From: Norana najaformis
Lineage: Eukaryota; Annelida; Clitellata; Crassiclitellata; Hormogastridae
Length of the DNA: 64,000 bases
NCBI GenBank assembly: GCA_964023275.1
Contig: OZ029920.1
Span: forward strand, 5,791,014-5,855,013
Reading direction: 5' to 3'
The notes beneath the pieces are model-generated. The model ran no database searches, was not told the origin of the DNA, and saw only the letters and a list, made by a program, of their open reading frames with translations. A program made the position numbers and the translations under genes. Below are positions 2,791 through 32,244 of the stretch, in pieces. The stretch's first letter is position 1. Every line of letters begins with the position of its first letter.

Positions 2791-3044
2791 CTAATTTCGA
2801 GGAGCAATTTTCATTTCCGTCTTCTTTAGAGAGTGTTTCCAACCATGAAACGAGTACCATATAACACCGTCCCGGTACGACCCTTCGCTGCCACGCAGGT
2901 ACCTCCCGTTCAGACATGCCCAGTGGGATCCACCGTAGAACCACCAAGCTCCATGGAAACTCTGGGCAAAGTTAATATCACTTTCGTCATTATCGGCATC
3001 CCTTGTGGTGAACTGCTGACTATTCTGATATTGCAGACTGTCTC
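2791..3044 (-). CDS. FREP-A exon 5: FBG calcium/ligand-binding end
   Basis: 254 nt from a CCAACTTAG acceptor to a TAG stop at 2793-2791, giving the end MKIAPRN. It contains the calcium-binding [18 protein letters not shown] and the terminal SLKKTEMKI. The canonical NCA cysteine is phenylalanine here and the usual cysteine after GAWWF is missing. One cysteine sits just before LNGRY instead. About 33 of 84 residues differ from FREP-B. Confidence 0.88.
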
Positions 3045-6000
3045 CTAAGTTGGATAAACAAGAAGAATAGCAGTTCCTCTCGTGGCAGTCATTGATGTGC
3101 AGTTTTACCGACTTCATTTCTTAGCCTCGGCAAAATTAAATTAGTTAGTGCTTTATCTCACCCGTTGATATACCCACCAACAGACAGAGAGTATGCGATG
3201 TTTGTAGCTGAGTTTACTCACTAGGTGGCGCAGTTGGAGCAGAAATCTCAAAACATACTTCTGCCTTCGCGAGATTGTTACACCATGGCAAAAGTGCACT
3301 TTTACAATGCAGTCAGAACGTAACCTTACATGTGTAAATATGTAGGCAGATCACAATGAATGCTTAAAATACAACCAGAATTCGAATCCATTAAAAATAA
3401 TACTAATCAATTAATGAATAAAACGAATACCATTTCGTGCTTTTTCTAAAACAATATGTTTGAAATCGTCATGAACACTTCCATCGATTGGTTAAAAAGA
3501 AGAAAATACAAACAGACATGCAAACAAACAAATACGCCTGCAAGCATACATACATACGTTCGTACATACCTGCATTTCCAGAGTATCCAGAAACACTGAG
3601 TCTGTAGTTATCAGAGGCTGAGCCGATAGTAAACTGTGAATATTCTGCGTATCGTTTATTTCCATTAAAATCTTCCAGTTCAATTCGCAACTTGTAGTTT
3701 CCGTTTGAGGTCAAATGATGAAGTGCATTGTTACCTGAAATTGAACCTCCTCATAGCTTTTGTAACCTTTCGCAAGACGAGAAATATCAGGCACATTAAA
3801 ACAGTTGGCAGCCAGTGAAATTAATCAAGTTTTCCTACTGGTGTGTTCTAAATGGCCTTTCATACCCTTACCTCACCGTAATTCACCTTAACTTAATTAA
3901 GCTTACTTTACCTTGATTAACCTGATCTCAATGTACTTTGCCTTGCCTTCGGCCTATCTTACCTTACCTTCCATTACTTCCTTTATCTTACCTTACCTTA
4001 CCTTTCCTCAGTTCTCCAGCACAAAATTCCGTATCTGACTGCAATGAATTATTAATATTGAAATCATAAAACTGCGTACCAAGCCAGAATTCGCCTCTGA
4101 GATTTCCGAAGCCATTTGCATATTCGGTCCAATTCCTGTAGAAATTCTCGCTTCCATCTTTACGTCTCTGAAACACCTAAACGTTAACGAAAAGAGGACT
4201 TAGTACTCGTTCGGCAGTATATATTTATTGAATTGTTGAATCCTATGGGACACTGAACTTTCAAACAAAACTTTGTCTTCATTGGGAAAAATGTACAGCG
4301 ACTTCCAAATTCAGATTCTTACACGTGTAATTTTCAGTTTCGTCAATTTGCAATGTAATGAAAAGTACTCAGTACTCATATGCTGTCAAAGTAATGCATG
4401 CCAAAGAGAAATACTAATGTGGCTAGAGCACTAAAAACGCACACAATATAATATATGTCTGGCAAAAAGTTTATTGAAAACAATAAATAGCAGAATATCA
4501 GTCTCCCAGAGAAATATTCTCCTCCATTTAAGAAATTGTGGAGCATTTTGTTACAAAATATACTTAGCAATTTATGCTTTAAACATGCACAGATTACACA
4601 TGCAGTGTATACAATGCACTTACTCGTTGCCCATCTTAAGGTCAAACAGTGTTTACAATAGCAATCTTGACCAAAGCGAAATGATTTTGCATATCTAATT
4701 TTTGTCTGGGATTCAACTTCTGGTGCCTCATCTGAAACTTACATGTACAACTGAAGCTGTTTAACCCCATAAAGAATAGATCGCTGTCTTCGAGGATAAA
4801 TGCGATAGAGCAGGACAATAAATGAACGAACTCCTTGTCTCGTCTTAAAAGTCTAATTCTTGTTGGAAGAATCTCAATTTCGACTCAGAAATGTTAGTGA
4901 AACATGGAGTTTAAATTAGTGAAGAATGCAGTTTTCGTTTACTCACAAGCCAGCTTCCAGTCGACGAACTCATGTCGCAGTAGACACTGAACAGCTGAAG
5001 ATCTCGCAGGTAAGTTTTACCTCGTGACGAACCAGTTCCAAGGTCATAAACTTTATATACATCACTTAAATTCTGACCGACTTTTCTTATGTCTGCGCAG
5101 TCTCGTGTCCACGTAACAGTAACACAATCATCTACAATAGCACAACAGTTAACTTCTAGTAACAAAAGAATGTATAAGTTACTGTCTTTTAATCCTACAT
5201 AATATAGTTTACTTACATTCCTATCTTGCTGTAACGTTGACTACGGCACATGCGACCTCATCTGTAAGAAGCGGGACAGCTCCAGGTTCCGCTGCAGAGC
5301 TAACATTCCACGCGCCAACTCAAAGCGGTCGGCAAGAGGCATTTGTCCCCGTTAGTCCCTCCTACGTAGACCGCTTAATATATATGGCCAGCGAAGAGAC
5401 ACCAAATTGCCCGCTCCTTAATAGCCCGAAGAGCGATGAGCAATATGGTATAGAAATTGCAAAGATCCATGTGAGAAACTCTTCGACTTTGAATTTACCG
5501 CAGTAGCTCGCCAGGTAAACGGAAGGTAGTCATCGAATAGTCACCCTTAACCGTACTTCGAATCATCGAGCAATAGCTTGGAACTAGCCAACGGCGTAAT
5601 GGTTCGCCGAACTCTTGTCCTCCCTTAGTACCTTAGACTTCATGGAGATCCGGTTCTATGGCAATTCGGAATGGACATTTCGGCGCCGACAATTCGGAGT
5701 GTACATCTCGGAGCGGGAGAATGTTTTACTTGCGAACATAAAATTAACATTTCAGTTTTAATGAAATTTAATCATGTTATACCAGGATAATGCCAAAAGT
5801 TACAAAGTGCAGCTTGCAACCATGCAATCTTATAACAATACTATGCTGACTAAAAAACGTCACGCACGAAATGTTTAAAAAGTTTTCTGAAAATCGTAAT
5901 TCTATCTGTTTTTGTTTGTTTGTTCGAATAAGTTAATGTTGTGGCTGCATCCGTGCAATGGATGTGCCGTTTCCGTAAAAGAAGGAAATCAGCTTAATGT

Positions 6001-9000
6001 CGAAGGAAAGGTTGACCCTTAACCGTACTTCGAAGTTGAGGTTGAAGATTGTTGTCAACCTGAAATGGAAGCTGAAGATATCTTCTGAAGTTACGTTTGA
6101 TGGTTTCTGTTTTTCGAACAGTTGCTTGAGCTGAAGGACTCAAATTCTCCAACGCTGACTGTACAATCGCTTTGGATGGTTCCTCAGAATCTTCTGCAAG
6201 TAGCTCGATGGTTGATCTAACTCGAGCTTTCTCCAGTTGACTGGTAGATGGTGCATGTGAATGTTCATATGGCGTCTTCACTATCTCTCCATTTGCTGTA
6301 TGGCGGCGACCTTTACAGGAATGATCACAGCATCCCCATATCTCCCTCTGTTCAGTTTTCTTTTTCACGTGATAAAGGTAACCATGGTAGATTAGCATTC
6401 TCTTACTTTTCTCAGACTCCAAAAATTCTACATCCATTTATATGGTCTACATTTAGTACTACTATGCAGACTTCTTGAAAAAAGAAAAAATTAGAGCTTT
6501 TTTATAATATAATGAAATTGCAGTTGCTATTATATTAACTTGTTATAGATTAACTAATATACAATATAGACAAAATACATGCGGACGTCGCTGAGCGCTG
6601 ATTTTTTCTTTCTCACCTGATAAACATATCCCTATCGCGTGAGTCATCTACTCCTACATTACGTACCAATTTTACAATTACAAATTTACACCGAGTTGTC
6701 CGCCCCGAATTATCCGTTTTTCACTCGGAAATCTCCGCGCCGAAATGTCCGGCTCCGAATTGTCCTGTTACCGGATATCCTCTGCTCAACTGACCGTTGT
6801 GATCTTCACCTGGAGATGGATCTAATATTACAAGACGGCGTGTCGTATGAAACTGGGCGACTCGGGGACGCGATATTACGTCATCATAAATGGCAATTGC
6901 TGTTCGCATTGACCTTGATCAATAGCAATGCAGGAACTATGCTCGCCGAAATCAAACACTAGACCTGTTTAGTACTAGCATCCTACATAATACATATACA
7001 ATTGTGTACATGTCAGAAGTCCCCAAAAATGCAGACAACGCAGCGTGCGGACGTCTGTGCGGAGGACAGACTTTCGACTGGTCGCAGGAAAACTTCTTGG
7101 TTGACGGTCGATGTCTCTCAAACGATCATTGTACTTACCTTGACTAGAATAGTAAACCCAGAAGGAATAATGTTGTTCTGCTACCGGCTTCGTCACAATT
7201 ACATCAATGATTGTAATTTATATGTATTAGTTAATTATTGTATTAATGTATTAAAGTATTAATGTAATACTCACACATACGCATGTGAGCATCATATGGT
7301 CCCCCTAATCCAGAGATCATAAAATGATTGAAATCCTAGTTTTCAGCAAACCCTCTTTATGTTTATCCTCAAAATATCAAAGCTTAGATGTGTTGCCTTC
7401 CTCTCTGCCGTAGAAACAGAAAGGCTAGATTTTTCGATGAATACAGTAGACGTTGTATCACTATATCCCATATCTCATCAACTAAATTTAGGGTCTAGCT
7501 TTGCCGTCCCTGCCGTGGTAGTTGTTGTCGATTCACATTGACTCCAGCAGAACTCATCATGCTACCTGGTTTCGCATTAGAATTTGCCATGAACGGTAGA
7601 AGTGAAAAGCCAGAGGAATTCAGAACTACATAGACACGAAAGCGTAGGACCTTTACGACTCGTAAAGAGATTCAGATTCAGATCCTTTAATAATCAGCAA
7701 AAAAACAGAACACTGCTCCACACTGTCGCGTGCTTTGGGGTCAATGGGTAATTTATTTATGATTGCAGAGGTGACATCATTCTACTTCTATATTCTAATT
7801 CATTCAATTATTCTGCATATACATTTGACATCTTTCATTCTATTGTCTACCTCTACATTGTACATCATTCACCATACTACAAATAAATAATCAAACTGGA
7901 GTACAGAAACGTTCAGAAGATACTGTGCTCGTACAAAGTCATACCGTGAATTTAAATAAGGTCTTCAAAATAATCGATAGGATATTAGAATTATTTGAAA
8001 CTGATGTAATTAAGGCAGGCCATTGAGTTCATTTATTCTAAGTTAACACAGACTACATATAGAGCGCAATTCAACTAAATACGAAAGAAAAAGAGGAGGA
8101 GGAGGAGCAGGAGGAGTAGTCTCTTAGGCTAGCCCTAAGAGGCAGCTATGCTTTTTAAATGTTGTCGACTTAATTTTTAGCTTCGGCATACGACAGCGGG
8201 TGGCCAGCTTTCTCCAGCGTCGCCTGATCTTCTCATTATCAGCACAACATCATTGCTGAGTTGGCAAGGGACGCAAGTGAAGCCAATATCTCGAAACAAA
8301 TGTTATCCTTTGCGGGGATTCTAACCCCCGACCACTCGATTGAGAGTCAAGCACGTCAACCAATACAGAATCGCGCTTCGCATACATAAATTCCCTTCAC
8401 TTACTTATAATAGAGTATAGAGGGATAGGTCGCCGAAGGGAGCACACGTGTTCCTGAAAGCGCGACTGGAGAATTGTGATATCCAGCGATCTTGGCGAAG
8501 ACTTAAACGGTGAGCTGTATCGTTTCTTGTGTTTAATTATTTCAGATTTATACTTCAGACTTAACACTGTTATTGCATAACTGTAGACTTGTAGTTTTAA
8601 ATCCATTTCGGTTTTTATTCCCTTGCTGCCGTTCGCTATGAACGCTGGTGAGGAAGCCACTACCTCGGGGTCTGCCACTTATGAGCCAAGACCTGAGGGA
8701 ATGGATTTTCTTGACCTTCCAATTCTGAAATAGAAGAGGAAGATATCAGATGCAGAAGGCGGCAATCCGTATTTTATCACCGACAGTGATGCCGATAGTT
8801 TTTCGGCAGATGATGAAAACGGCTTTGAGGTCGTCCGCAGAAAGAAAGCCGGCAGCGACGAACGACGGGCCGAGAAGAGAGAGAAGGTGCCCAAGGTTTC
8901 CCTTGCTGCCCTGCGGAAAACCCCAGGAAAACTTGACCTGGTACCTCGGAAAAAAAGTTAAGCAACGTACACCTGGGAAAAGGTACGTGCAAAAGGTCAT

Positions 9001-12000
9001 AAAAGGTATCCCTAGCACTATCTGACACCGACATCTTGTGTTCCCGGTGATAGAAGCTGAGAGGATCCACAAGATCCAGAACAGCGTGAAGGTACCGACG
9101 ACAGCGGTAGGCCTACTCTTCAATTTTGAACCGTGTACAATTGTGCCAAACAAGATTTCTATCGGTTTTCTTGTTTTCAAGACTTATGACTACGTGTCAC
9201 CGCCCACTCGCTGTTTTGTCTGTTTTTCTTCCGGTCATATAGCGAAGCACTGTACGAAGTGCCAGAAGTGCAGCATATGTGCCGGAGAGCACGAGTACAC
9301 CGACTGCAAACAAAATGACACACCGAAGTGCGCAGCCGGCGGTGGGTCACACTCCGCGCATTCCAGCACCTATCCGAAATACATTCAGGCGAAGACTGCC
9401 GTCACAATCAGCTTCAAGGACCAGAAGCTGCCGAGCCTGTCGTATAAATAAGCGCTGCTGCGACAGAAGGCGAGTGGACGGACTCAGCGAGCACGGACCA
9501 AACAAAGCCTTCAAACGCACACGCCCCTGCAGGGGCCGTATGCACGACGCAGGAGTAAGTTCTACGCCAGAGTAAATTCGGCCTACTCCGAGTAGAGAAT
9601 CTATTTCGGTATGCACGACGACATAGTAGCGCACAACTCTGGAGTATCCCTGGAGTATCTCTATTCGACCCAGCAAGCAGGAGTGAGTGGTCTACTCCAG
9701 CGTAAGAGAAAGAATTCAAAATGGCGGATGTCCCAATTCGTCGCATTCAACGCAGTTTACGACGTCAAAAAGTATTTAGGGATAGTCGAAATCTTCTCGA
9801 TTCATTGTCCGATGACGAGCTTTACGATGCGTTTCGTTTTCATCGTCACATTGCTAGTAATTTGTGACGAACTTACGGCCGATGTGGAATTCGCTGTACC
9901 ACGACATGGGTCTGCCGTGCGCTATACAGGTAGGGCCTACGATTAATGTAACAGTAATTTTTCACAGCCACAGTAGAATCTAACTCATGCCACATCTAAA
10001 CCTAACTTAAATTTCTTTGTGTTTGTGTTTAAGAAATGGCAAAGCAAATTATTTATTGCGTGGTTATATGTAGTATTCATTTGGCTTTGTAACACAATAA
10101 TAATAACAATAATAATAATGAAAATAATAATAATAATAGTAATAATATAAATAATAATAATAATAACAACAATAACAACAACAACAACAACAACAATAAC
10201 AATAATAAAAAAAGGAAGAAACTTCTAAACTTCTAATGTGCCGCTGTCTAATACACAAGCTATCAACCGATGGCGCACCAAAGCCAAGCCACAATCAGGT
10301 CAATATCCATAAGGTCAGTCCACATGACAGAGAGGCGGCCTACGGTGGATAAGCAATTTGAAAAAGGTACGTTTTAAGTTGAGAAGAAAATGACAAAAGT
10401 GACTGAGCAGAACGAGCAGACACAGAGAGGAAATTCCAAAATTTAGGTCCAACAACCGAAAAAGCCCATTTACCCATAACAGTTCTAGTTCAAGGTATGA
10501 CCAGAGAAAGACAATCATATGACCTTGCAGAATAATGATAAGATTTGGGAATAAGGACTGATTTTATGTATTGTGGTTGGCCGTAGTAATGTTTTATAAA
10601 CTGTAAGTCCCAATTTGAAACAAATCCTTTGCTAAACAGGAAGTGCTGAATATGGTGCTGTTTCTGCATTCAGCAAATGAAAATTACAGGCATATGTTCT
10701 TCATTTATACCTTATTATTACTTTTAGGCAAGATGTAATGCAATAACTAATAACGATACACAAAATACAAATTCACACAGAGATGATTTTGTTGTATTTC
10801 AGTTTATGACAACAAATAGATATTTCTGTTTTGTTAATCAAGGAGGAATTGTACAATTGCAGGTGATGCTGACTTAACATTTCTATGCAGCCAGAACATT
10901 CCAAAGCATCACTGGAGAGTTCTTTGGAGTTGATCAATCAACGGCAAGTCGAGTCATCAGCCGTGTCTCCAAATCATTCATGCGACAGATGCCAAAATGT
11001 GTTAATCTACCCAGCCAGGAAGAAGCAGACGCAGCAAAGGCCAAATTCTATGTGAAGGCCAGATTCCCAACTGAACCATGTCTTTGACGACATTATCATG
11101 GACAATAATGAAGATGATTTTGACAATGGCACTACAGCCATAACCTCTTAACATCAAGCAGCAGGCACGAGTAGCTGCAGGGAAGGTGGCACAGGACCAA
11201 CTGATAATGTCTTTTAGTAATTTCAGGAATCATTAATGCATAACTGTGTTTTTGTAAATTCAGGAATCATTACTGCAACATTTTCTGTATTGTTATGGAA
11301 GTTGATAAGTGAAAACCAAGTGCATCACTTCTCAGCAAACAAACCCCGTGCATTTGGATGGCTCGTTCGTCAGCTGATTTAAGCAGGATTTATTATATAG
11401 GTTCAGATTGCAGGCGATTTTCTTGATTCTACTGTCTTGTTTACTTATCTGTCTCTGTCTGTCATTGTGTCTTTTTTGTGTCTCTGTCTGTGGGTCTGAG
11501 CTTCCTAGGGGCTCTCATGCTGGAAGCGCCTCTGAGTAGTTTGTTCTGTAAGAAGCACCATATAAGTTATCAAATCAAATCAAATGAGCTATTGCTTATC
11601 AGCTGCCAGAGACTTATTCGTTGTGGCCATCCTTCTTGTGTCTCATACACAAGCCTCTGTTGCTTTGTCTCACTTGTCTCTGTTTCTGTGCCTGGAATAG
11701 TCTTCCTGTAGACATCTAAGAAGCCGAGAATGTTTTTGTTTTTAAGAGACTTTTGAGATCCTATTTACTCTCAGTTAAAATTTTCTGTTTACTGTCTGAC
11801 TCCAGTATCAGCATTTGATTTTGATTTTTATACATCGTCCATTTATCATTTATTGTTGGACTCTTGTTCGTGCAAACATTTGACATAAATCACCCTTGAA
11901 GTAGATTGCTACTGACGATGCTGTATAAATTGTCATGATTACAGTTACAATTACAAGTTTCTCATTTGTTGCACTGTGTTTCTCTGTTTGGGTGTATTTC

Positions 12001-15000
12001 GTTCATCTCCCTGTCTTTGTCGCTGTGATTGGTCTATCTGTACTTCTTCCTTAGTCTTTGGAGAAGGGTAATAGCATTGACCAGGGTTACGTATATTTCC
12101 AAATTTTACTGGGAATCTGAAAGACACTTATGAAAGCTGAAAGCGGATAAAATGTGGAGACCTTCTTGTCAAAATCTCCATATGGTGGGATTTGGGCATG
12201 CACACATTCACGAGTGCACGGCAAAGATTGGCAATCTAACCAAAGTAAATTGCATTAAAAAACCATAACCAACTAATACAGCCCTTTGTGATGAGGAAGA
12301 ATGTTGATATGGGCATTATCCTGACTTGAAATACCACATAAGCATTATTTATGTTAAAAGATACGAAAGAGTAAAACTTTTATTATTCATATCAACATAT
12401 AACACATAATAATAATTATAAGTAGTAAATCTTTGCATGGGGACGCAGGTAATATTACAGTTTACACGCCTCCTTCTTGCCCTGTGCTGTCAGTGCACCC
12501 AGCAACTTGGACTATATACTGTAGCGTCCTTTTCTTGTACTATCCCCTCCAACGTGCACCGCACCTATTTGTCTATGAAATTTGGCTTGCGCTGCCCTTT
12601 TTTCGCACTCCATTCTAGCTAATATTTCTAAACAGTAACACTCGACCATAACGTAAACACTCCTACCAAAGAAGCTTAGTGTCCTCTTTAGATAGCTACG
12701 CGCATGCGCCAGCAGCCAAAACAGGCTAAAAGAGGCGAACCCTGCGTGAGAAATATTCCGTCGCTCACTGGGTGCAGCGAGTAGCTATTCGGCTGTCTAC
12801 TCCTGCGTCGTGCATACCGTTTATCGTCGGCGGCTACTCGGTGAACAGTTATTCGGCGAGGAGGCGCTATTCGGCGAATAGCTTACTCCTGCGTCGTGCA
12901 TACGGCCCCTGGTGCGTCCAACGCTGTCACGGTCGAGTCTACGAATACGCCCGTGTCAGCCTGTGATGCATCTTCAACAGACCGGAGTGGGGTGAGGAAA
13001 AGCGGGAAGATGATCAGCACGTGGTGGAGACGTCAATTTGCAGGAAGGACGCCACACGCGAAGACCACCCTGGAGCGAACGGCCGACATCAAGGCGCGGA
13101 ACCCGACCAGGGGAAACGACAACGCTCTGCAAGGACCCCACCACCTCTCTCCCTCCGCACGACCACCCGAACCCACGGATTGGGAAAACGACAGAATGAC
13201 AAATCTCGAGCAAAGAGAATGAATGAAACAGGGCGAACTAGATGAAACTTCATACCCCGTTAAAAGGGTGATCCATCAAGGACCCAGAGGGCCAGTGCCT
13301 CTCGGGCCACCTAGGGAGTTAATTGCGGTCGGTTGCCTGTATAGAAACAAGAGGGAACGCTGAAGAAAGGGCTCGGTTCGGACCAACATGTCGAAGTAAC
13401 AACGTTGGCCTACGACGTATTCTCACACAGATTCAGAGACTGTGACGCTTCGTAACAGATTCGTTGAGAACTTCGCTAGATTTAGAACAGTTATATAGGC
13501 GTAGGCTTTAGTTTCTTCATTAGTTCCAAATTAAAAGAATAAACCTTCTCCGTTTCGAGATTGAATGTGCCGCACCCTCAAAAGGCCACGACGGCAGTTT
13601 GTGAGGGTCGCGACAAACGGACAGGGGACATCTCGGCCAGCAAACGCACACGCCCCTGGTGCGTCGAAGGAATGGGGAAACGAAGCAGCAAATTCATCGA
13701 ACGTAAACTCCCCTGGAGCGTCCAAAGGACAGGGGAAAACACGAGCAAAAAACGCACACACCCCTGATGCGTCACAAGGACAGGGGACAAGTGAGACCCT
13801 GATCAGAGAAGCCATCGTACAACTCAAGGCTCTCCAAGCCATGTGCCAAGCCGCCTATGCGATCGGAGATGAAGTCGGTAAAGGGAACTACGCCTCGTTG
13901 CCAGCAGGGAAGCTTCTAGAATTGCTTTCGGCAGCCATCCACTCGCACTCAACATCCCGATGGATGTGGTCACCGACAAAGTCACCAGCACAATCAACGA
14001 AGGGTTCGAATCCAAGAAAACCACGTCTGCCACTCCTCTCTGTGAAACACAACATGGATCTCACCATACTGCAGTGGAACGCGTGTAGCCTCAGAGCCCG
14101 CCTGGGGGAGCTGAGGCACCGCATCTCCAAGATGCGGGACCCGCCATCGGTCATATGCGTTCAGGAAACATGACTGAGACCAACGAGCAGTCGTCTTTGT
14201 TTGGTCCGCGCTCTTGTGTGCTCCGTCCGCACGCCTTCTGTCGCAGCAGAGCTTCTTTGTACGACAGGCTCGGCAGCTTCTGCTCCTTTGACGCTGATCG
14301 TATTTCGGAGAGGTGTTGGAGAGCGCGGAGTGTGGCCCATCGCAGGCTGCGCACTTCGGTGTCTCATTTTGTTTGCAATCGGTGTACGAGTGCTCTCCTG
14401 CACATGTGCTGCACTTCTGGGACTTCGCACAGTGCTTCGCTATACTTTTGTCAGTAACAACTCCGGAACTTCCAGTCATCTGGACCTTGCGGTGGCTTCG
14501 ACGCTCTTGGCGCAAAAGTGCACTTGGACAGTCCTGGACGACTCGATGGGAAAAACGTCGTGTCATCCGTCTACTCTGGATGGGAATCCGTTGGCAGGCC
14601 TCTGTGCGCGTGCGCGGACTTGTCACCGGTGACTATTTTAGTTCTTCTAGCAATTGACTGCTAAATGATAAACTTTATTATCTTAATGACATTTCTAACA
14701 TCATGAGTTTTGCTCAGAGAGCGACACTGATGAGTTTGTCTTGAAGTGGCGCTACAAAAATATTAAATTACAATTACACATTATAATTACAATGATTCCA
14801 CGCCACCTTTACTCACGCTAATAGAAGTCCAAGTAATAACATTACGATACTTGTTTAAAGAACGCGTGCGAGGGTCATGTAACTTATTTTTTACAATGCG
14901 TCCAATGTCTAACTGATCTCATTTTATTGAGCCGACGAAAGTAATATACAATATTCATTATCGTAAACTCCAAATTTCTATAGTGCTACTTAACAGTTAA

Positions 15001-19689: not shown

Positions 19690-20175
19690 TTGAATTAAGT
19701 ACAAAATCACATCATTTACCCATAACTCACTTCAATCCTCTCATCCCTCCTAACTTCGTCAGTTTCTTACCATCCAACCACTCTGTTCAACCCGCTCCTC
19801 TTCTGCCTTAACTCTTAGCTACCATGCCTCTGGAATAAACTCCCACAAGAATTATAACAAATACCTAACTCATCATACGAACTCTCCAAAACTTCACCCT
19901 TTGCAATCGCTGCTCAGGTCTTTCGCTCAAAACTGAAAACATTCCTCTCCCACAAATCCTCTCCTGATTCCCCCTCTTCCTCTAATCTCTCTTGCCTCTC
20001 GAATTCCAAACACCATCCACCGTAGCCGTCTGACTGTATGCCTGCTTGACCTGGAACCGAGTCTGAATCTGATCCTTCCTGCCTATCGATTTTGGATTGG
20101 CTCAACTGGATACCGCGACTTGGCTGCCGTTAGGCGCTATAGAAATCTTGAGTGCATCCTTACGATTACGATAAC
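19690..20175 (+). mobile_element. CR1/L2-like LINE 3' fragment (A)
   Basis: Contains WNKLPQEL, then SKTSPFAIAAQVFRSKLKTF, then a non-coding CATCCACCGTAGCCGTCTGA 3' region and a TTACGATTACGATAAC tail. Frames are broken. Confidence 0.68.
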
Positions 20176-21024
20176 ATCTTCATTCTTGTAACCCATAGCT
20201 TAAACGACATATTAGTTGACCACATTATCAAGCAATTCAAAATGTACACAACTGATGTAGCCTGATACTATGACGATGAATATTATAAGCAGACAGTTTG
20301 TGGTTTTGAATCACGACCATTAAACTGAGAGCTGTCATAAACTCGTTCAATCGCGACGATACGCTGGAGGAAATACTGCAGTTTCCTTAATCGATTGTTT
20401 GACAACTGGTGGTTATGAATGCCAGGGTATTTCAGACAGATAGCCCAACAAGTTTTTTGTGTTTGCCTGAAAGTTCCTTTTCCTGGCTACAATGTATACA
20501 ATCTTGTTGGTGATTAGTATCTCTTACATGAAAAAGCGACAAATGTAGAATCATTACCAGCCTGCAGATCATCAAATTATTGCTTGTTGGTATGATATAT
20601 AATAATATATGTGGAAAGAAGCTTATTGGTTACTCTTATAAATGCAGTTGTGGTGCTAGCAGTGCAGTTAGGAATTCTACATATTTTATTTTTATATTCA
20701 TTCAGCTATCAAGTGTCTACCCACGTCACATGAATTAAAAATCAGAAATGATCTAAAAACTGATTCAAATCTAAAAATTTAGGTGTTAAAAGCTCGGACT
20801 AGGGCTGTCGTATAAATATTTTATTGTTAGCAGGAACTCCTCGATTTTGGTATGCTCTCCAAAACAGTTTGCGTTCGACTCTTCTGAAACGATCCTTGCT
20901 GTGGTCAAACTTGAACAAGTCCTCACAGAGGCGACCAAAGGTGCTTCGTCATTCGACGGTAGGCTAGTGGCACCATATAACAAATACACTATTTAACAAA
21001 ACGTAAACAACTAGCAATGTGTTG

Positions 21025-21880
21025 CGTTGTTGTTTATCTCAAATGAAGGCTCTCTACCGCCAACCTTCTCCCCGACTGACATTAGGATGTTGCAATTGGA
21101 GCCTGTCTCCTTCGAAGACCTGCACCAGTTGTTGTTGTCGTTACCAATGAAGTCGTGTGTGCTCGACCTACTGCTGTATTTCCAATTAAGGGCTTTGAGA
21201 ATGGATTTCAGCCGTTTTTACTGATGTCATGTGACATTTCTTTGAGTGATAGTCGCTTATCGCTTCTCAGGAACGATCTATGGGTTTGCCTGTTTTCTTA
21301 GTCGTGGTCCTTATGTTACTGATATGGCCAACTATCGTCTTTTGCCCAAAGAAACTTTTTAATCAAAAATAGTTGAAAAATATGTCAATGCAGGTTTTGC
21401 GTTATCTTGAGACAATCATCATTTTCTGTGGCCTGTCCCTCTCTGGAGCGTTGCCATTTCCTGAACACGTTGCCACCCGTCTCTAATCTGAACTCGTCTC
21501 CAGGCCGTGTAGACCGAAACTTGGGAGCGCAGGTCGGACTCCTTTATTCTGTCCAAGTGTGGCGATAGCGTCTATATGGTCTCTTCCAAACTCTTGGAAG
21601 CCGAAAATCATGGCTCATTGAGCTCATGCATTGTCCTGCTCACCTTCACCATCTGCGATGTGCCAAAGAGTCGAAACTTCTTCGTTTGAACCGAATCCAA
21701 ACCTGGAAGTGCATAGGGCACCAATAGGCTATAGGCCTACTTCCGCGTCGGTCACATGTGCCGTATAGGAAATGCGCTCCTATTCTCCTTAGATATTGCT
21801 GCTGAAAAGCGTCCAATAATATATTTATGTAAGTAAGTAAGTATGCTTGTATATATTTATGTATGGACGTTTGCATGTAA
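21025..21880 (+). mobile_element. LINE ORF2 fragment with (ATGT)n-like tail (A)
   Basis: SLPPTFSPTDIRMLQLEPVS, then FEDLHQLLLSLPMKSC, resembles the start of a CR1-type RT domain (F.PVS..D....L..LP.KSC.LD). TDMANYRLLPKETF follows in another frame, then the RVGHMCRIGN-type 3' end and a GTAAGTAAGTATG tail. There are many frameshifts. Confidence 0.6.
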
Positions 21881-22079
21881 GTATGACAGAGCTAGAAAGT
21901 GCGCTATATGTATTGTATGATTCAGAGCATATTGGCAAAGGCACTTAGTATTAATTGCTTTCCTTAAAATGAACCAGTATTGTATCCCACCTAGCAAGGG
22001 GATAAAATGCGCTGGAGTGCAGAGAGCTATTTTTAGCACCTAGCACTCTGCATGTCAATCATGGATAAGGGATGTAGTC

Positions 22080-22350
22080 ATCCGGATAACCAAATACGGA
22101 CATGTTAGAAACAAATATGGTTATGGGGTCCATCCTGGGCTAGTGAGAGGCGCTTGGGGGCCTAGAGCAAATCCGCCCAGAGGCCGAAAGGATTCTAGCT
22201 AGAATAGTCCGGAGAATGCGCACTTGGAAGCAGTTGGAAAGAACAGATCGGACAGGCAGACGGTTCAACCAGAAGCGGAGAAGATGGAAGACGATGACAA
22301 CGGAGAAGACGAGAACCGAACTAGATCATAGAATTTATGTAGAACTCAAA
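22080..22350 (+). other. Unidentified basic ORF-like block (A)
   Basis: One frame reads KYGHVRNKYGYGVYPGLVRG, and a second picks up RPEAERILARIVRRMRTWKQ and RTGRRFNQKRRRWKTM, ending VELK before a TAA. It looks like a frameshifted piece of a basic protein, possibly from a mobile element. I do not recognise the family. Confidence 0.25.
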
Positions 22351-22669
22351 TAACGTGAATATATTAGGGATTAGATTAGATTAAGCTGAGTGCTGTCAAT
22401 TCACATGCAATCTCTATACGATCGTGTTATCTGAAGGTAAGTGTATTAAACCATTATTTTATAATAATCCATCGTTTCGTTATTCATTCATTATTGAAAA
22501 TTCATGTAGCGCCTCTTTAAGAGTATAACCACTTCGAATTATCAGCTTCTAGCGCGCCAGCATTTAATGTCCACTGCATCACTTAAGACACACACAATCC
22601 ATGCGGCTAGTTCACCTACAGGAATAGAATACAGGTCGGAACAATTGGGCTACATAGAGCCTAGGCCAC

Positions 22670-22750
22670 ATAATTATGTATGCTTGTATGTATGCACGTA
22701 TGTAGGTATGCTTGCCTGTATATATATATGTAGGCCTATATGTATATATT
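22670..22750. repeat. (ATGT)n microsatellite (A)
   Basis: ATTATGTATGCTTGTATGTA and following units; the orthologue lies at 48,412-48,482. Confidence 0.75.
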
Positions 22751-22939
22751 GAGATGCTTAAAATAGCGCTTTCAACTGTATCCCAATAGAGCTATCTAAG
22801 ATAACCTAAACGATGTTAAAGTCATTATGAGATAAAAGTTCTCTATTTGCTAACAGCGCTCAGATGACTAAAAAATTCACCGTTTGATCGTCGTCTTCTG
22901 TTCTCAGTTCTGGGGAGCCACAGAGTAGTTCTTGAAGAT

Positions 22940-23415
22940 ACGTTACTTAGGTTCGGGATTACACTTCTACGACCTTCCGGCGCCTCTTCGTTAAAATTTG
23001 GAAATTGCTTCATAACCGCAACTGCTTCGCCACTACGGAATAAACTCTCATCAGGAGAGTGACCCATCCTATGAACTCATTAACACTGCACCTCCTGCAA
23101 TCTTTGCGCAGGTCTTTCACTCAAAACTGAAAACATTTCTCTTCCACAAATGCTATCCTGATTCCTCCTATTTCTCTCGCCGCTCTAAACACCATCCACC
23201 GTAGCCGTCTAACTGTCTGTCTGTCTGCCTTTTTGCCTGCCTGCCTGCGTGCCTGGCTGCCTGCCTGCCTGACCTAGGGTGTTGACCTGCAAGTGAATCT
23301 GACCTTACTCCCTATCGTGTTTGTTTGAAAGAGGGCAAGAGAATTAGCTGTTTCTCACAACTTGGCTTTCTGTGGGTGTTGTAGAAATCTAGTGTTTACG
23401 ATTATTATTATGATT
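22940..23415 (+). mobile_element. CR1/L2-like LINE 3' fragment (A)
   Basis: Same family: AAACTGAAAACATTTCTCTT, CATCCACCGTAGCCGTCTAA, a (CTGC/CTGT)n stretch at about 23,210-23,270 and a degenerate TTACGATTATTATTATG tail. Confidence 0.65.
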
Positions 23416-24599
23416 ACCATAGATAATCATATGACTAGACTTTCGCAGAAGCCTTATCAGAATGCACAGCGTTACTGTGTCAACATAGATACAAGGACAG
23501 TCAAACAGACACATGAATGAACAGGATGCCATTCAGTTATAGTTCAATAATTAAATGACTATGTTGCCGTAGAGTCCACAATGAATATGGTGTCAACACA
23601 GACATATAGACAGACAAGCAGACATATGGTGGGGGGCAGCGCATGCACATACAGCTAGGATAGTGATTTTGGAGTGTGTGCATCAACAACTCTGAATTCG
23701 AAAACAAACTCAGTGCAGTTTGCAAGTCATGAGAGATACGCAGAAATACAGAGGGATGGTCAGAAGGACGGGTGAAGGTGTAAACTGGTGTGGGGTCTCA
23801 TGATGATTGACGATCAGAGTCAATCATATGACAAATCATCGCAGGAGTAGATTGCAGCGGAGTCCACAGTAGTTATGGTGTCAAGCGTCAACATCGAAAT
23901 ATAAATAGACCAACATATGGGTGTACAGCGCATTCACATTTAGCTGAGACAATGACTTTTAGAGTATTTGTATCTGTAGCGATTCTCCCATTAATTCACG
24001 TTTGTATTTGTTGAATTAAGCTGACAGCAGCTTACTTACCTTCTTGGTTAGTGCATAGTAGTTTAGTATAGTTTGTACAGAGATTGCAGATGATATAGTT
24101 CTGTAGGAAGGCCAGCGCATAAGTTTAAAAGCTAGATATAGAACATGACCAGCTTAAGTAGGAATGTAGACCTATGAATTGTATGGGCGAGTGTGGCGTG
24201 TCAGTACGCCGTATTTTAGCCTACAGGACGATTTACAAGGAACTAATCTGATATGACAGCAAATTTGAAAATTGAGCACTGGCTGATGTCACAAAGCAGA
24301 CGACAATTATAATGGAGAGTTAGCACTGGACATGCGCAAATCAGCGAGGGCGTTTGGCCGCCATTTAAAAATCAAACGAACTCCTGAGGGTATAGAGGAT
24401 GCTTTCTGTGTTAAATCGTCAGATATATTCGTTGGTAGATGTTGGTGCAGACATGTAGAAAATCCGTTTGAGATCAAACGTTCGTAAACTTCGATTATCA
24501 TTCGTGTTAGAAGTGTCCTAAGTCGTAGGAACTTCGACAGTAACTAAGACTTACCTCCTTACTGAGGAAGCGTTAACCGTGTCGAACTCTACAGAAGTC

Positions 24600-24830
24600 A
24601 TAATCTACGCTATGGACTGTGATAAGACACGCGCATAATCCTCCACATGTATCACTGCTGAATGGCGTCCTAATATGCATGCCTGTACTTATGTATGTAT
24701 GTACCTACTCATATATATAATATACGTATGTATGACTGTGTACGTATTCATGTACGTATGCATGTACCTACATATATATATAAATATATGTATGCATTTA
24801 TGTACGCATGTGTGCATATATGCATGCGCA
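24600..24830 (+). repeat. LINE-tail and (ATGT)n microsatellite (A)
   Basis: ACGCGCATAATCCTCCACATG..GCTGAATGGCGTCC 3' end followed by about 150 bp of degenerate GTATGTATG and TATA runs. Confidence 0.65.
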
Positions 24831-25439
24831 TGAGTGATGAAGAAAAGTTTATCATGAAGCTGCTGATGTTTTGTGATGACAGAATAAAGACACAGAGCAG
24901 CGTTTTCCAAATCTTTTCCCGATTCCGTTTCTTTCTGTTAATTTTATTAACGCTGTCTACATATGCAAGTAGTCTACATAAGTTATCCAATTAGATCGGG
25001 ATGGCAGACCTGTATAATGTGACCAAAGTATAAATCCATATATATACACTGGATAAAAAAGTTTTCCAGATGTACAATTGTACATGTTATTTTAGAGTCT
25101 ACGGTCAGTGGTTTAATTTTTAGGTCGATCACTGAATGGCCAGTTTTCCATTCGACTAAAAGCTGTTCAGTAAGCTGGTATTCACATTTTCATCTATTGT
25201 CACTGTTACTAGCGAGATGTTGCATATTGTACACGAATAACGTGATGGTCGTTCGCGTGATGTAAACCGTCAACGAGGGAAATTCCAACGCTACTCACGA
25301 GATGTCGCCGCAGACGGGTTTCTAGAAAATTCCTACACCTATGCGACAAGACAATTAATATAGCGCTTTTAATTTACCGTTCCAAAGGTTGCACAAAGAT
25401 TCAAAAGCTGGCCATCCTGACAGGGCTCTAGAGTGATGC

Positions 25440-26235
25440 TGAGAATATTTGGCAGTTGACATTACATTTTGAATAGAGTACAAAATCATTTCACTTGCCT
25501 ACAACATACTTCAATCCTCTCAATCCTCCTATCTTTGTCAGCCATTTACAATAGGCCTACAACCACTACATTCAACCCGGCTCTCTTCCGCCCTTACACT
25601 TTTCCGCTTTCCCGTCACCTCATCCTTAAAATTTGGTAATCGCTACATAGACATAGTTACTGCACCTCTCTGAAATAAACTGCCGACAGAATTATGACAA
25701 TTATCTGACACATCCTACGAACTCACCAATACATCACTCCTTGTAATTTATGTTTCAGTCTTCCACTCAAAACTGAAAACTATCTTCTGCCACTTGTTAT
25801 TTTGATTCTTCCTATTCCCCTTATCTATCTTGCCGTTCCAATTTCAAACACCATCCATCATAGCCGTCGGACTATCTTCCTACCTGACTCTTCGATCTTG
25901 AAGTGGAATCGAACCTGAACCTTTATGCCTGTCGATTTTGTTTCGACTGATCTGTTGTGTATAAGCTGGATCCGTCTACTTTGCTTCTTTTGGCTCGGAA
26001 GAAATCTAGAGTTCACTATTACGATTACGATTACAAATTTTATAATCTTCTAAGCCATAGATTAATCGGCACATTAGTTGGCTACATTCTCAAGCGATTC
26101 AAAATGCAGACAACTATTGTGGACAGACGTGGTACAGTGACGACGAATATTTTAATAGTAATTGTAATTTGACATTTATGAAGCGCCACTTTCAAGAATA
26201 AACTCATCAGGGGCGCTCCCTACCCGAGAGAGTGA
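25440..26235 (+). mobile_element. CR1/L2-like LINE 3' fragment plus inverted LINE tail (A)
   Basis: The plus-strand LINE end (AAACTGAAAACTATCTTCT, CATCCATCATAGCCGTCGGA) closes with TTACGATTACGATTACA at 26,016-26,033. From about 26,145 to 26,235 the minus strand carries the other LINE tail type (GGAGCGCCCCTGATGAG..AGTGGCGCTT). Confidence 0.62.
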
Positions 26236-26631
26236 GACCAATGTCAAATAATACAGACTTCAGGGGCTTGCGAAACTGCGTAAGGAACAACCTGAGAAAC
26301 TATTCAAAATAATATAATCATATATATATATAATGTTCATAAAATAATTCAGTATCTTATTTTAATGTTCAAATTGTTTGCATGCTTAAGTAGGTCTACG
26401 ACTGATTTCGGACATCATAAAGATTAGCATTTTTATATTATTTGACATAAGCACATATAAATTGATTCTATGATTGAACTCGTATCTATTTATAACATTC
26501 AAACGTTCATGGCATTATCTCATTGCTCAAATATTTATAACAAATTTCGTCAGCCAATCCACATCCACTACATACAGTTGTTGGTCCAGTTCGTCAGATC
26601 ACCACAGGAGAAGTCGGCTTCCACGCAAAAA

Positions 26632-27640
26632 CTAATTTCGAGGACCGATTTTCATTTCCGTCATCGTCAGAGAGTTATAGAGACCACGAAACGCCCTCCA
26701 TCCGATAGCATCGGCGAAGGATTCATTATGCCCTTGCAGGTATAGCCCGTTGAGATTTGCATAATGGCAATCTTGTACCATCAAGCTCCACGAAACCTCT
26801 GGCCACAGCTGTAATCCACGATGAGATCATGAGTTTGGCATCCATTGTGCTGAACAGCTGGCCATTGCGATATACCAGAATGTGTTCTAAGTTAGATAAA
26901 CAAGAGGAATTGCAGTTCCTCAAACTAACCTCTAGTGGCAGTCGTGGATATTGAATGTTTACCGACTTAATTTTCTCATTCTTGGCATGAGAAAGTCGGG
27001 GCTATTGCTTCCTCTCACCCTTCGATCTACCCACCAACAGACAGACATCATGCGATGCTTACAGCCCTCTGCATTGGCGAGGATTAAGAATATACTACAT
27101 AGCTACATATTACAATGCAGTCATAATGTTACAATACACGTGTAGATATGCAAGCCTACCTTTAAGAATATTTACAACACAACTGGCATCCAAACCCATT
27201 AATAGAATGATAATATCTACATGGCTTATGCTAATTTAAAACAAGAAGATACTGTGCATTTTGTGAAACACTTTTTGAAAAGGTGATCAACACTTTTTGT
27301 CAATCGGCTAAAAGAACAACAGATACAAGCACACACAGAAACAAACAAAGATACACATTTAATGCATATTGCATAAATACACGCATTTATGCATACATAT
27401 GTATGTATGTATACATGCATGTATGTATGCGTAACTGTATTTCCAGAAACATTGAGTGTATAGTTATCATAGGCTGAGCCGGAAGCAAACTATTCATATT
27501 ACGCGTATCGTTTACCTCCATCAAAATCTTCCAGTCCAATTCGCAACTTGTAGTTTCTGTTTGAGGTCAAGACAAGAAGTTGGCACCCCGTCCTTAGCGC
27601 GCACCCATGAAGTTCATTGTTACCTGAAATTGAACCTCCA
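26632..27640 (-). pseudogene. F2-A: truncated FREP pseudogene
   Basis: Remnants of FBG exons 5 and 4 only. The exon 5 relic (26,632 to about 26,892) keeps VYRNGQLFSTMDA, then in a second frame DYSCGQRFRGA, then in a third frame ANLNGLYLQG and TEMKIGPRN with a TAG stop. That means at least two frameshifts, and the tryptophan codon after RGA is TGA. The exon 4 relic (about 27,430-27,640) has two in-frame stops near YA*YE* and a roughly 35-bp insertion after the TSNG-like region. Exons 1-3 are missing: beyond 27,840 the sequence turns into a LINE scrap and ATGT microsatellites. Confidence 0.8.
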
Positions 27641-27839
27641 CCTAGCTTTAATAACCTCTCCAATGACGAAAATTATCCTGCATATTACAACAGTTTACTA
27701 GCAGTAAATTCACGCTGCTGTTTATACAGGTATCTGGAAAGTGGTCGACTACCTTACAATGCCCCGCCTTACCTTAACTCATTTGCCGAAAAGAGAAGTA
27801 TAGAATTGTCGCATAATTAAACCCCACTTTGCATTCCAT

Positions 27840-29160: not shown

Positions 29161-31842
29161 TGATGGAGCAGCTCAGCGTTAATGACAACAAGCAGCGAAA
29201 AAGAGTCTTTGGCAATTATACTAAATTTCTGTACAAATTAGTGAAAAATATGCCATTATTGATTAGAGTTCAGATTTTGAAGCAGAGCATTTGTGTAATG
29301 TTTTGCGTTTTGAAAGGAAATATATCATTTTCACTTAATCTTGTTTAGAAATGAGCAATAAAGGAAGAAACTTTTGAAAAACAAAACAGTTGATTGACTG
29401 TGAAATCTACTGCACATAATAAAACAGCTATAATTGGAAACTTTTTCAGATCTACAGAATGACGTTACTGACTGCAAAAAGCGTTTTAATTCCGTCGTTT
29501 TATATTTGTTTTTGCAAACACAAAGCTAAAACATCCACTATATTCTTGCTCTTTCCAGTGAATACCACTGCTTTCTATAGGGGCCATGACAAAGTGGTTG
29601 TATTCTGTCAAAATAGTCTGGGTCAAGTGTTTCTGAAGAGGAGGCAGTACTACGTAGCCAAAACTTTCGATTTGTTGCTGAAGTGCATTCTTTCGCAGTT
29701 TGAGAAGTTCATATCCCCAAAGCTCCTTACGGCAACGATATACTTGCAATTCGACAGTAAAAGAAAGCGAATACGAGGCTTGTGGAAGATGTCCTTCTTT
29801 TTTCTTTCTCAAGTTCGTGGACTCACCGCCCTTTGTTGTCGATCGCGCACCTCACTATGTTTCTCTTTTGGCTCCTGTCGTGTGCTAATAAGCTCAGCTT
29901 GTGCACATCCGTTTTCCACCAATCCTGAAAACACTTAAAACCGAACTTTTCTAGCTATCTTATTATGTTTCCGCTAATGCACCATCACATAACCACCACC
30001 ATCAACGACTTCCATCGCACATAGAGAATTGATCCATGCCGCATCTCAAGCTTTGCAACCCCCTTCAGATTCTGAACTGGCACTGAAAGTGACTAAACAG
30101 CCTGGCACTTGCGGACTTATTTGACATAGCCCCGGTAAGTAAACGGGTATCCGTCGTGCAGATTTGTGTGGCGCTGAGGCTACATCACAATACAATACCT
30201 GATATCATCCAGTCATTCTCTGCTCTGTCCAGGTCTACATCTGATCCCTAATATATTCTAATCTATTCTAAAGACTTCTATAACGCTGTTATCATAATGC
30301 TCAAGACAACATAAGATGGTCACTTTAAGTGAAGTCTTAATCAGAATCGTAATCCATTAGAGAAGCCACGTCGAATTCATATCGACCAGAGAAACCAGAA
30401 GGCAAGCAGCTGTGGAAAAGCAAGTTGAAAGAGATGCCTCTTTAGTTTAGACCTGAATGACATCAAAGATTTGACAGAACAAACTGAACTGGGCAGTGAA
30501 TTTCAAAGCTTTTGACGAGCTAGCGAAACTGATGGTTGTATATCCGTCATTGCAAATACGACCTGTTTCGCCATCTTGATCTTACATATTGAAGTAGCCA
30601 ACGCACACTTAAAATTAGCGATGTACAGCTGTTTACATGTGTTACACCAGTGTTTAATACATGTTGAGATACTGTTGTTTGTTCAATATTACCTTTTGGA
30701 CGAACCAACTGCATACCTTTCTCTCAAATTAAGTTATTCTCGTTTTTCTCTGAAAGTGGCAGCTCAGGTCACGATAAATCGTGCCTTTTGAAATCTGTTA
30801 GGTAGCCATGTTTCAGCGCGTTTTGTCAGGTAAAAAAAAAAAAGACGTTATATAAACAGTCATATGCATACATACAATTTAGTTCAACACGAAATGCAGG
30901 TACTAGTATGAACAAATCGTGTTACCTAAATTTCTGGTTTCTATTAATTCCAGTTTTTAACTTAATATAGACAGATCCTGTAAACGCATCGATTGAGTAT
31001 AGCACCAACAATAAATGACACGCACTCAAAAACACTGCCAAAAACTACACAAATTCATTTAATTCTACATGGTAATAAATTCAAAAGATAACAAAAGATA
31101 AACTTGGAACAAAATTAAAGATGCTTGGCCAATCAAAGTTAATAAAAGTTCATATGCTTCCAAATAGCATCGCCATGCTTCAAATAATGAGTCATAACAA
31201 AGACTAAGTTTACGGTAAACAACAGCTAATGTGCTTATTCGAGTTCCTAATTATTTAAAGCTTAACAACCATATCTCAATATAACTTCTACATATATTTT
31301 CTCTGCTTTTTCATCTACTTTCTAATAAAATAGTCAATAATATTGCCTTGTACTGCGCCAAAAATAAGTATCAGATCAATGGACTCATCACTCTCGCTGA
31401 AGGCAGCTTCCAGCCATTTTCAATTATGCATAATGTCGCCTAATGCCTTGGACATTATGATAAAAGACCAACAGAAGTTATTTGAATAAATCAGATTAGA
31501 TTAGATTACATGGCTACGGGTTGCGTCGTATGCATGAATTTTTAAGTACTACTTTTTGTCATCAAAAAGATTAATATAATCATACCAATTGATATAAACA
31601 CATAAATTGCCGGTAGTCCTTAATTAACATCTTATCGTAAAGTAATAAAAGTTAAAAGCAAGCTCCCTAAGTACTAATGTTCCATGTATCAGGAAGATTA
31701 ATACATTTTTACCCGAGGTATTTATGATCCCTCAGGAATTACAAAATTTTCCGAAGAATGAAGAAAATATATGATAATATACCTACTAATTACTAAAAGC
31801 TAAGCGGATGTAGATTGTTCATAGGACTAAATGAATGTCTTA

Positions 31843-31848
31843 TTTTAA
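31843..31848 (-). terminator. Candidate poly(A) signal of FREP-B
   Basis: ATTAAA about 145 nt downstream of the stop, at the position equivalent to FREP-A. Confidence 0.4.
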
Positions 31849-31990
31849 TGCTCAAATGTTTTGAGCATCTTCTCATTGCTCAAATGTTTATATCATAATA
31901 ATCTTCGTCGCCTAATCGATATCCACTGCATGTAGTCGTTGGTCAAATTTGTCAGATCACCATAGAAAAAGTTGACTTCCAGTCAAAGAA

Positions 31991-32244
31991 CTAATTTCGA
32001 GGAGCAATTTTCATTTCCGTCATCTTCAGGGAGTAATACGAACTATGAAACGTGTACCAAGTAACACCTTCGCCGCCCGACGTATGGCTGCCACGCAGGT
32101 ACCTCCCGTTCAGACATGTATAATGGTCCCCACTGTAGAACCACCAAGCTCCACGGTAACGATGGGCGTCGTTAGTACTACCTCCGTCATGATCTGCATC
32201 CATTGTGCTGAACTGCTGACCATTGTGATGTAACAGACAGTCTC
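31991..32244 (-). CDS. FREP-B exon 5: FBG calcium/ligand-binding end
   Basis: 254 nt from a TAACTTAG acceptor to the TAG stop. Key parts are [35 protein letters not shown] and TEMKIAPRN. It is strongly diverged from FREP-A between these fixed motifs although introns on both sides are nearly identical. Confidence 0.87.

What the first reader, a model, noticed from the sequence alone, without database searches (positions are those of the whole stretch)
2791..32244. Hypervariable last exon on a nearly invariant FREP scaffold
Counted by eye, FREP-A and FREP-B differ at 4 of about 185 residues in exon 1, about 6 of 62 in exon 2, 0 of 32 in exon 3, about 4 of 55 in exon 4, but about 33 of 84 in exon 5. 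Intron 4 just upstream and the sequence just downstream are almost identical, so divergence is focused on the exon that carries the calcium site and ligand pocket of FBG domains. Fixed islands remain ([26 protein letters not shown]) and differences cluster between them. FREP-C exon 5 is a third, different version. This looks like diversifying selection or exon-level gene conversion, as expected of an immune recognition or allorecognition array.
Basis: partly seen in the sequence, partly recalled or inferred. Interest (0 to 1): 0.82.

Follow-up and report, generated by a model that had tools for sequence, protein, structure and literature searches.

The report
Lectin genes differing in pocket exon
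Two neighbouring, almost identical copies of an animal sugar-binding (fibrinogen-type) protein gene differ sharply in one short exon, the one that shapes the binding pocket, and a sister gene cluster in the same genome indicates that this exon can be copied from gene to gene, which suggests a way to keep the body of a recognition protein fixed while varying what it binds.

Summary
FREP-A and FREP-B are complete five-exon genes in a duplicated block (4.6% apart over 23.8 kb). Exon 5 differs at 20% of bases and 33/83 residues; intron 4 and the 3' flank at 3.6%. Replacements run 5 times the adjacent noncoding rate, which drift cannot give. Among A, B and D one scaffold conversion tract ends at exon 5. 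In cluster C12 one gene has its sister's flanks but another paralogue's exon 5 (p=4e-10). In C12 and C7, replacements concentrate at positions of the FIBCD1 acetyl pocket; A and B both lost its disulfide and kept the calcium aspartates. Best reading: diversifying selection on a pocket exon in arrays where exchange separates that exon from its scaffold. No donor was found for A or B. Immune or allorecognition use is untested.

The parts
15355..15910 (-). FREP-A exon 1: signal-peptide-like start and heptad-rich stalk (by eye)
   Evidence: ORF and splice donor
4947..5131 (-). FREP-A exon 2
   Evidence: reading frame and splice sites
4080..4176 (-). FREP-A exon 3
3570..3734 (-). FREP-A exon 4
2791..3044 (-). 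FREP-A exon 5: calcium site and ligand pocket, the diverged exon
2822..3097 (-). A-B divergence peak, from -53 in intron 4 to +222 in exon 5
41128..41683 (-). FREP-B exon 1
34219..34403 (-). FREP-B exon 2
33303..33399 (-). FREP-B exon 3
32793..32957 (-). FREP-B exon 4
31991..32244 (-). FREP-B exon 5
63883..64000 (-). FREP-D exon 2, window part (whole exon 63883-64067; exon 1 at 67033-67588 in the fetched flank)
63020..63116 (-). FREP-D exon 3
59296..59460 (-). FREP-D exon 4
58517..58767 (-). FREP-D exon 5, the intact third version
1..27774 (.). duplicated block, unit 1 (A and C)
29179..53427 (.). duplicated block, unit 2 (B and C')
3045..3734 (-). exon 4 and intron 4: A, B and D within about 5% of each other (intron 4: 3.6, 5.3, 3.6%), unlike the 3' flank (D 14-15% away); conversion tract ending at exon 5
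4080..4759 (-). intron 2 and exon 3 stretch where A is closer to D than to B (second conversion tract, not next to exon 5)
26632..26886 (-). FREP-C exon 5, frameshifted pseudo-exon
52353..52607 (-). FREP-C' exon 5, copy of C with the same 5-base frameshifting insertion

Best explanation
A, B and D are open tandem genes for proteins with a signal-like start, a heptad-rich stalk (both by eye) and a C-terminal fibrinogen-like (FBG) lectin domain. SHOWN: the scaffold (exons 1-4, introns, flanks) is alike because of a block duplication, with site patterns of conversion between A, B and D, while exon 5 is far more diverged. SHOWN by site counts in the sister cluster C12: one gene's exon 5 and adjoining intron tail group with a different paralogue than its flanks do, as expected if a tract of about 300 bp was copied in. 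INFERRED: natural selection favours new pocket variants, so exon 5 changes are fixed above the noncoding rate, and exon-5-sized exchange plus selection against homogenising conversion separates the age of exon 5 from that of its scaffold. The product would be a set of binders with one shared stalk and different ligand pockets. Whether the A-B difference arose in place after duplication, or came from a donor or old allele absent from this assembly, is not settled.
For: Focused peak. Exon 5 replacements 41/199 against 19/470 noncoding, 5.1 times, p=1e-10. Silent sites 9/49.8 against intron 4 19/524, one-sided p=3e-4; unchanged codons 5/50 against 6/318, p=0.009. Exon 1 dN/dS 0.24 and open frames of 418, 418 and 417 residues speak for working genes. 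Scaffold conversion in A/B/D. Replacement excess also in C12 pairs L034-L038 and L040-L041 and C7 pair L053-L066, 4 of 9 pairs with A-B, uncorrected. In C7 exon 5 has the silent rate of exon 4 (4.38 and 4.29) but twice its replacement rate (2.51 and 1.16), 23 loci. L040 carries L033-type exon 5 on an L041-type scaffold, p=4e-10; tract -65 to +228 with L041 as sister, permutation p=0.0005. Replacements concentrate at nine FIBCD1 pocket and calcium-loop positions: mean 11.4 against 2.7 in C12 (p=4e-6), 15.7 against 5.8 in C7 (p=6e-4) (positions from PMC3908420 passages).
Against: No donor for A or B exon 5: the best full-length matches in the genome are each other at 80%; B also has a 60-bp piece at 82% near H3. 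Site types inside exon 5 among A/B/D are not mosaic (p=0.70). Five of nine pairs show no replacement excess, and that of L040-L041 follows from the transfer itself, so it is not separate evidence of selection. Whole-exon dN/dS is not above 1 in A-B (1.16; replacement against silent p=0.84) and is below 1 in C12 (0.81) and C7 (0.58); the columns above 1 there were picked by their replacement counts. The raised silent divergence leans on multiply hit codons: unchanged-codon counts in A-D and B-D are only 4/47 and 4/51. With L037 as sister the L040 tract reaches left to -161. The pocket test weakens if the conserved cysteines and calcium aspartates are added (C12 p=0.0014, C7 p=0.13). No expression, polymorphism or binding data.
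Confidence: 0.6

Rival explanations
1. Selection only, no exchange: after the duplication exon 5 of A and B took up amino-acid changes in place at many times the neutral rate.
For: Replacements 5.1 times noncoding; sharp edges close to the coding sequence; conserved islands; no donor in the genome; the exon transfer seen is in another cluster.
Against: Needs dN/dS of about 12-25 at 33-45 codons in simulation and then gives few silent changes: P(sd>=9)=0.003-0.007 without two-base mutations, but 0.03-0.18 if 5-15% of mutations hit two bases, so it is not excluded. The intron 4 tail of A is also changed.
Confidence: 0.25
2. Old balanced alleles, as in MHC exon 2 (recalled): two long-lived exon 5 alleles with recombined flanks were captured side by side by the duplication. 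This overlaps with the best explanation, which leaves the source of the A-B difference open.
For: Raised silent divergence; 23 of 50 A-B differences have both states among the other eight cluster copies; a missing donor is then expected.
Against: No polymorphism data; states shared among copies are also expected from repeated hits at free sites.
Confidence: 0.2
3. Relaxed constraint: the pocket lost its role and exon 5 drifts.
For: Pocket disulfide lost in both A and B; dN/dS near 1.
Against: Drift cannot exceed the adjacent noncoding rate, yet replacements run 5 times above it; frames, calcium aspartates and islands are kept.
Confidence: 0.05
4. Local mutation hotspot at exon 5.
For: Silent and replacement sites both raised in A-B.
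Against: In 23 C7 loci exon 5 has the silent rate of exon 4; islands inside exon 5 are unchanged.
Confidence: 0.04
5. Assembly artefact: the two units are haplotypes placed in tandem, so A and B are alleles.
For: 4.6% divergence is within what a polymorphic animal could show (general knowledge).
Against: No run of N in the window; unit 1 has a 3.4-kb stretch that unit 2 lacks; D and other copies form an array. Read coverage could not be checked.
Confidence: 0.06

Closest known systems
Primate red/green opsin exon 5 and the divergence-peak model of duplicates under gene conversion (PMC3924837; passages seen)
   Same: Tandem duplicates; introns held alike by conversion; a divergence peak on the exon that sets specificity.
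   Different: Here the peak holds dozens of changes in a binding-pocket exon, and an exon transfer between copies is seen in a sister cluster.
FIBCD1, ficolins and tachylectin-5A (FBG lectins)
   Same: FIBCD1 and ficolins are the best-scoring relatives of known structure, tachylectin-5A is among the hits; calcium aspartates kept.
   Different: A and B lack the pocket disulfide C401-C414 and some acetyl-pocket residues (pocket from PMC3908420 passages).
Snail FREPs (PMC7588048; passages seen)
   Same: Expanded FBG family; variants attributed to gene conversion and point mutation.
   Different: No IgSF domain here; there variants arise between cells of one snail, here the differences are between germline copies and in the FBG pocket exon.
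Ciona v-Themis self-sterility proteins (PMC9265791; passages seen)
   Same: Fibrinogen-like, multiallelic recognition proteins.
   Different: v-Themis genes sit in the first intron of PKD1-like genes; such a partner was not searched for here.
Sea urchin 185/333 (SpTransformer) genes (search listings and starts of abstracts only)
   Same: Clustered immune genes with segmental duplications.
   Different: Unrelated protein (recalled); repeat mosaic rather than one domain exon.

Membership tests
Fibrinogen-related proteins (PF00147) | C-terminal fibrinogen-like domain | tested here: met
   A 231 bits, B 227 bits, cut-off 22
Snail FREPs in the strict sense | one or two IgSF domains before the FBG domain | tested here: not met
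   Pfam scan of spliced A and B finds PF00147 only
Acetyl-binding FBG lectins (TL5A, ficolin, FIBCD1) | calcium aspartates D393 and D395 | tested here: met
   kept in A, B and D
Acetyl-binding FBG lectins (TL5A, ficolin, FIBCD1) | pocket disulfide C401-C414 | tested here: not met
   A F401/S414, B D401/D414; kept in D and in 27 of 27 C7 loci with open exon 5
Acetyl-binding FBG lectins (TL5A, ficolin, FIBCD1) | binds acetylated ligands | not testable with these tools
   needs expressed protein
Duplicates with a divergence peak under gene conversion | low flanks, peak on functional exon, conversion in flanks | tested here: met
   that the exon is functional is inferred
Duplicates with a divergence peak under gene conversion | exon older than flanks (orthologues in other species) | not testable with these tools
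   the genome has no relatives held; silent-site excess only suggestive
Ciona v-Themis | nested opposite in intron 1 of a PKD1-like gene | not tested
   only six other window ORFs were scanned: one has reverse transcriptase and endonuclease domains, five have no match

The most novel reading that the evidence does not exclude
A germline cassette system: in several FBG-lectin arrays of this animal, a segment of about 300 bp (intron 4 tail plus exon 5) is exchanged between scaffolds that are otherwise held alike, and selection keeps the variants apart. The C12 transfer (-65 to +228 against L041) and the A-B peak (-53 to +222) have similar ends. This would make a repertoire of ligand pockets on one fixed stalk, possibly with high allelic diversity and a use in self/non-self recognition.
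Probability: 0.3. Interest if true: 0.8.

Novelty: new variant of a known kind. Interest (0 to 1): 0.57.

Why it matters
How animals without antibodies diversify germline recognition proteins is a long-standing question. Here the variable part is confined to one pocket-coding exon, the scaffold serves as an internal neutral control, and one exchange event has a candidate donor and mapped tract ends, so the process can be tested directly with population sequencing and pocket-swap binding assays.

Tried and rejected
Donor search for A and B exon 5 in the genome (self included): A gave 10 matches, all in the C8 cluster; B gave 12, of which 11 in the C8 cluster (one a 60-bp piece at 82%) and one weak match on C12; no full-length donor (the tool scores only its best candidates). 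Mosaic test inside exon 5 among A/B/D: negative. Half exons in intron 1 of H1-H3 as donors: present there, none near A, B or D in the 204 kb searched.

Discordance scan of 39 loci (12 C12, 27 C7): 32 had a flank sister under 25%, 17 had a different exon 5 neighbour, 12 reached p<0.001 uncorrected. Several of those have donor flanks 30-60% apart, hard to align, so I rely on L040 alone. Silent changes sit closer to replacement changes than expected in 14 chosen pairs (mean 2.44 against 3.29 codons, p=0.002): compatible with short exchange or two-base mutation, not decisive. In 253 C7 pairs exon 5 exceeds exon 4 in dN in 235 but in dS in only 107. A paper on glycan receptors reports that an apparent selection signal in primate FIBCD1 came from multiply substituted codons (PMC10329266, passages), a caution that applies here too.

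Dropped rows: L058 (early stop), H3 and F (broken exon 5) left out of exon 5 alignments; H1 and H2 fell out by a length slip of mine and entered from the earlier codon alignment; pairs with both flanks over 22% were not printed; exon 4 was found in 23 of 28 C7 loci and 0 of 12 C12 loci within the fetched stretches; the nine pairs were chosen. Searches for papers reporting a pocket-exon peak in FBG lectins listed none whose title or abstract start describes it; most of the listed papers were not opened.

Full report
Setting. The window is C8:5791014-5855013 of an unnamed 608-Mb genome in 17 contigs; the genome-wide Fibrinogen_C search reports 160 exon-level matches, a lower bound, with dense groups on C7, C12 and C8 among others. 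I joined the window with 70 kb on either side, all contiguous. The local array runs, in window coordinates, H1 (-32 kb), H2 (-21 kb), H3 (-11 kb), A (2.8 kb), C (26.5 kb), B (32 kb), C' (52 kb), D (58-64 kb), a partial copy E (76 kb) and F (79 kb).

Genes. A and B each have five exons with an open frame of 418 residues, and D one of 417 when its exons are spliced; splice sites are present, and D's exon 1 lies outside the window at 67033-67588. Pfam finds only Fibrinogen_C in A and B. The start looks like a signal peptide and the rest of exon 1 like a heptad-rich stalk by eye; I ran no predictor. C and C' share a 5-base frameshifting insertion in exon 5; C has no recognisable exons 2-3, and C' keeps an open exon 2 but half of exon 3 and a broken exon 4, so both are pseudogenes. 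H2 has a frameshift in exon 2, H3 has several, F has one in exon 5.

The observation. A and B lie in a duplicated block (1-27774 and 29179-53427). Mean divergence over 23,835 aligned bases is 4.6%; exon 5 stands at 20% and is the highest interior window of 2285, the next being 13.2%. The single higher window lies at the end of the block, which I read as the passage into older C/C' paralogy. The edges are sharp: dense differences begin 53 bp before the exon (with single ones at -64 and further out), and the last lie about 30 bp before the stop.

Rates. A-B: exons 1-4 pooled dS 0.037, dN 0.020; exon 5 dS 0.207, dN 0.241; exon 1 alone dN/dS 0.24. Exon 5 replacements (41/199) are 5.1 times adjacent noncoding differences (19/470, p=1e-10). 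Silent sites are raised as well (9/49.8 against 19/524 in intron 4, p=3e-4; unchanged codons 5/50 against 6/318, p=0.009), so within exon 5 replacement and silent rates do not differ (p=0.84). A simulation of selection alone gives that many silent changes with P=0.003-0.007, rising to 0.03-0.18 when 5-15% of mutations hit two neighbouring bases. So selection alone is strained but not excluded.

Conversion in the scaffold. With D as third copy, intron 4 differs by 3.6% (A-B), 5.3% (A-D) and 3.6% (B-D), while the 3' flank of D is 14-15% from A and B. In exon 4 plus intron 4 the sites shared by A and B against D are 16 of 39, in the 3' flank 50 of 64 (p=2.6e-4). In 4080-4759 A is closer to D than to B (27 of 57 sites against 10 of 91 upstream, p=1e-6). 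The first of these tracts ends at exon 5, where the three pairs differ by 20, 23 and 27%. Inside exon 5 the site types are not clustered (p=0.70). No full-length donor for either exon is found at better than 80% in the genome; a 60-bp piece near H3 matches B at 82%.

Other clusters. I fetched 40 exon-5 loci with flanks, 12 from C12 and 28 from C7, out of the matches listed; all 40 have an AG acceptor at the same place, and 39 have an open exon 5. Of nine close pairs tested, A-B, L034-L038, L053-L066 and L040-L041 show replacements above noncoding (5.1, 3.2, 2.3 and 2.1 times; p 1e-10, 0.003, 0.015, 0.004, uncorrected); L037-L042, L047-L048, L052-L054, L056-L070 and L049-L050 do not. The L040-L041 excess follows from the transfer described next. 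In L053-L066 exon 4 is identical while exon 5 has 12 residue differences. In 23 C7 loci exon 5 and exon 4 have the same silent rate (4.38 and 4.29 per site on the tree) but replacement rates of 2.51 and 1.16, which argues against a mutation hotspot. Whole-exon dN/dS on the trees is 0.81 (C12) and 0.58 (C7), below 1.

A transfer with a candidate donor. L040 is 5.7% (intron 4) and 4.4% (3' flank) from L041, and 13% and 17% from L033, yet its exon 5 is 6.8% from L033 and 13.9% from L041. Informative sites read 86:17 for L041 in the flanks and 5:22 in exon 5 (p=4e-10). With L041 as sister the best segment runs from -65 to +228 relative to the exon start; with L037 as sister it runs from -161 to +203 (permutation p=0.0005 each). 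The A-B peak runs from -53 to +222, close to the first of these, though the right end is set by a conserved tail that carries little information.

Pocket. By alignment to FIBCD1 and its published pocket (PMC3908420, passages seen: Y405, H415, Y431, W443, A432, C401-C414, calcium at D393 and D395), the calcium aspartates are kept in A, B and D. A has lost C401, C414 and A432 and has F405. B has lost C401, C414, Y431, A432 and W443. D keeps the disulfide but has lost H415, Y431 and W443. The disulfide cysteines are kept in 27 of 27 C7 loci, and in 12 of 12 (C401) and 10 of 12 (C414) C12 loci. Replacement counts at nine positions named in that paper (397-399, 405, 413, 415, 431, 432, 443) average 11.4 against 2.7 elsewhere in C12 (p=4e-6) and 15.7 against 5.8 in C7 (p=6e-4). 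With the four conserved cysteine and calcium-aspartate positions added, p is 0.0014 and 0.13. Of the columns with eight or more replacements, 11 of 13 (C12) and 17 of 28 (C7) lie within two residues of the nine positions, against 30 of 80 columns overall; C7 also has hot columns near the exon start. A and B share a cysteine directly before the conserved LNG.

Conclusion. The evidence fits a recognition gene array in which the scaffold is concerted and the pocket exon is diversified, by selection and, at least once in C12, by exon-sized exchange. The closest described principle is the divergence peak of duplicates under gene conversion, known for opsin exon 5 (PMC3924837, passages seen). Immune or allorecognition use is an analogy only (snail FREPs, PMC7588048; Ciona v-Themis, PMC9265791).

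Noticed in passing
window 59611-62625 (-): Open LINE-type reverse transcriptase ORF of 1004 aa (RVT_1 and endonuclease domains) sitting in intron 3 of gene D.
   Followed up: partly
window -29382..-29206, -18754..-18676, -8639..-8460 (left of the window): Orphan 5' pieces of exon 5 lie near or in intron 1 of H1, H2 and H3; none was found near A, B or D. Possible leftovers or donor pieces.
   Followed up: partly
window 26632-26886 and 52353-52607: Pseudogenes C and C' share a frameshifting insertion, so C was probably dead before the block duplicated.
   Followed up: yes
L040 (C12:15208380-15210022) with L033 and L041: Exon-5 transfer between paralogues with mapped tract ends.
   Followed up: yes
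window 2791-3044 and 31991-32244: Both A and B lost the FBG pocket disulfide kept in most other copies and have a cysteine directly before LNG; pairing partner unknown.
   Followed up: partly
C7:29.83-30.18 Mb and C12:13.2-15.3 Mb: Large FBG arrays with many open exon-5 loci; only 40 loci were fetched.
   Followed up: partly
window 9530-12904: A stretch of about 3.4 kb present in unit 1 and absent from unit 2 of the duplicated block.
   Followed up: no
window 4947-5131 against 34219-34403: Exon 2 of A and B has 6.5 replacement and 0.5 silent differences; small numbers, but it may also be under selection.
   Followed up: no
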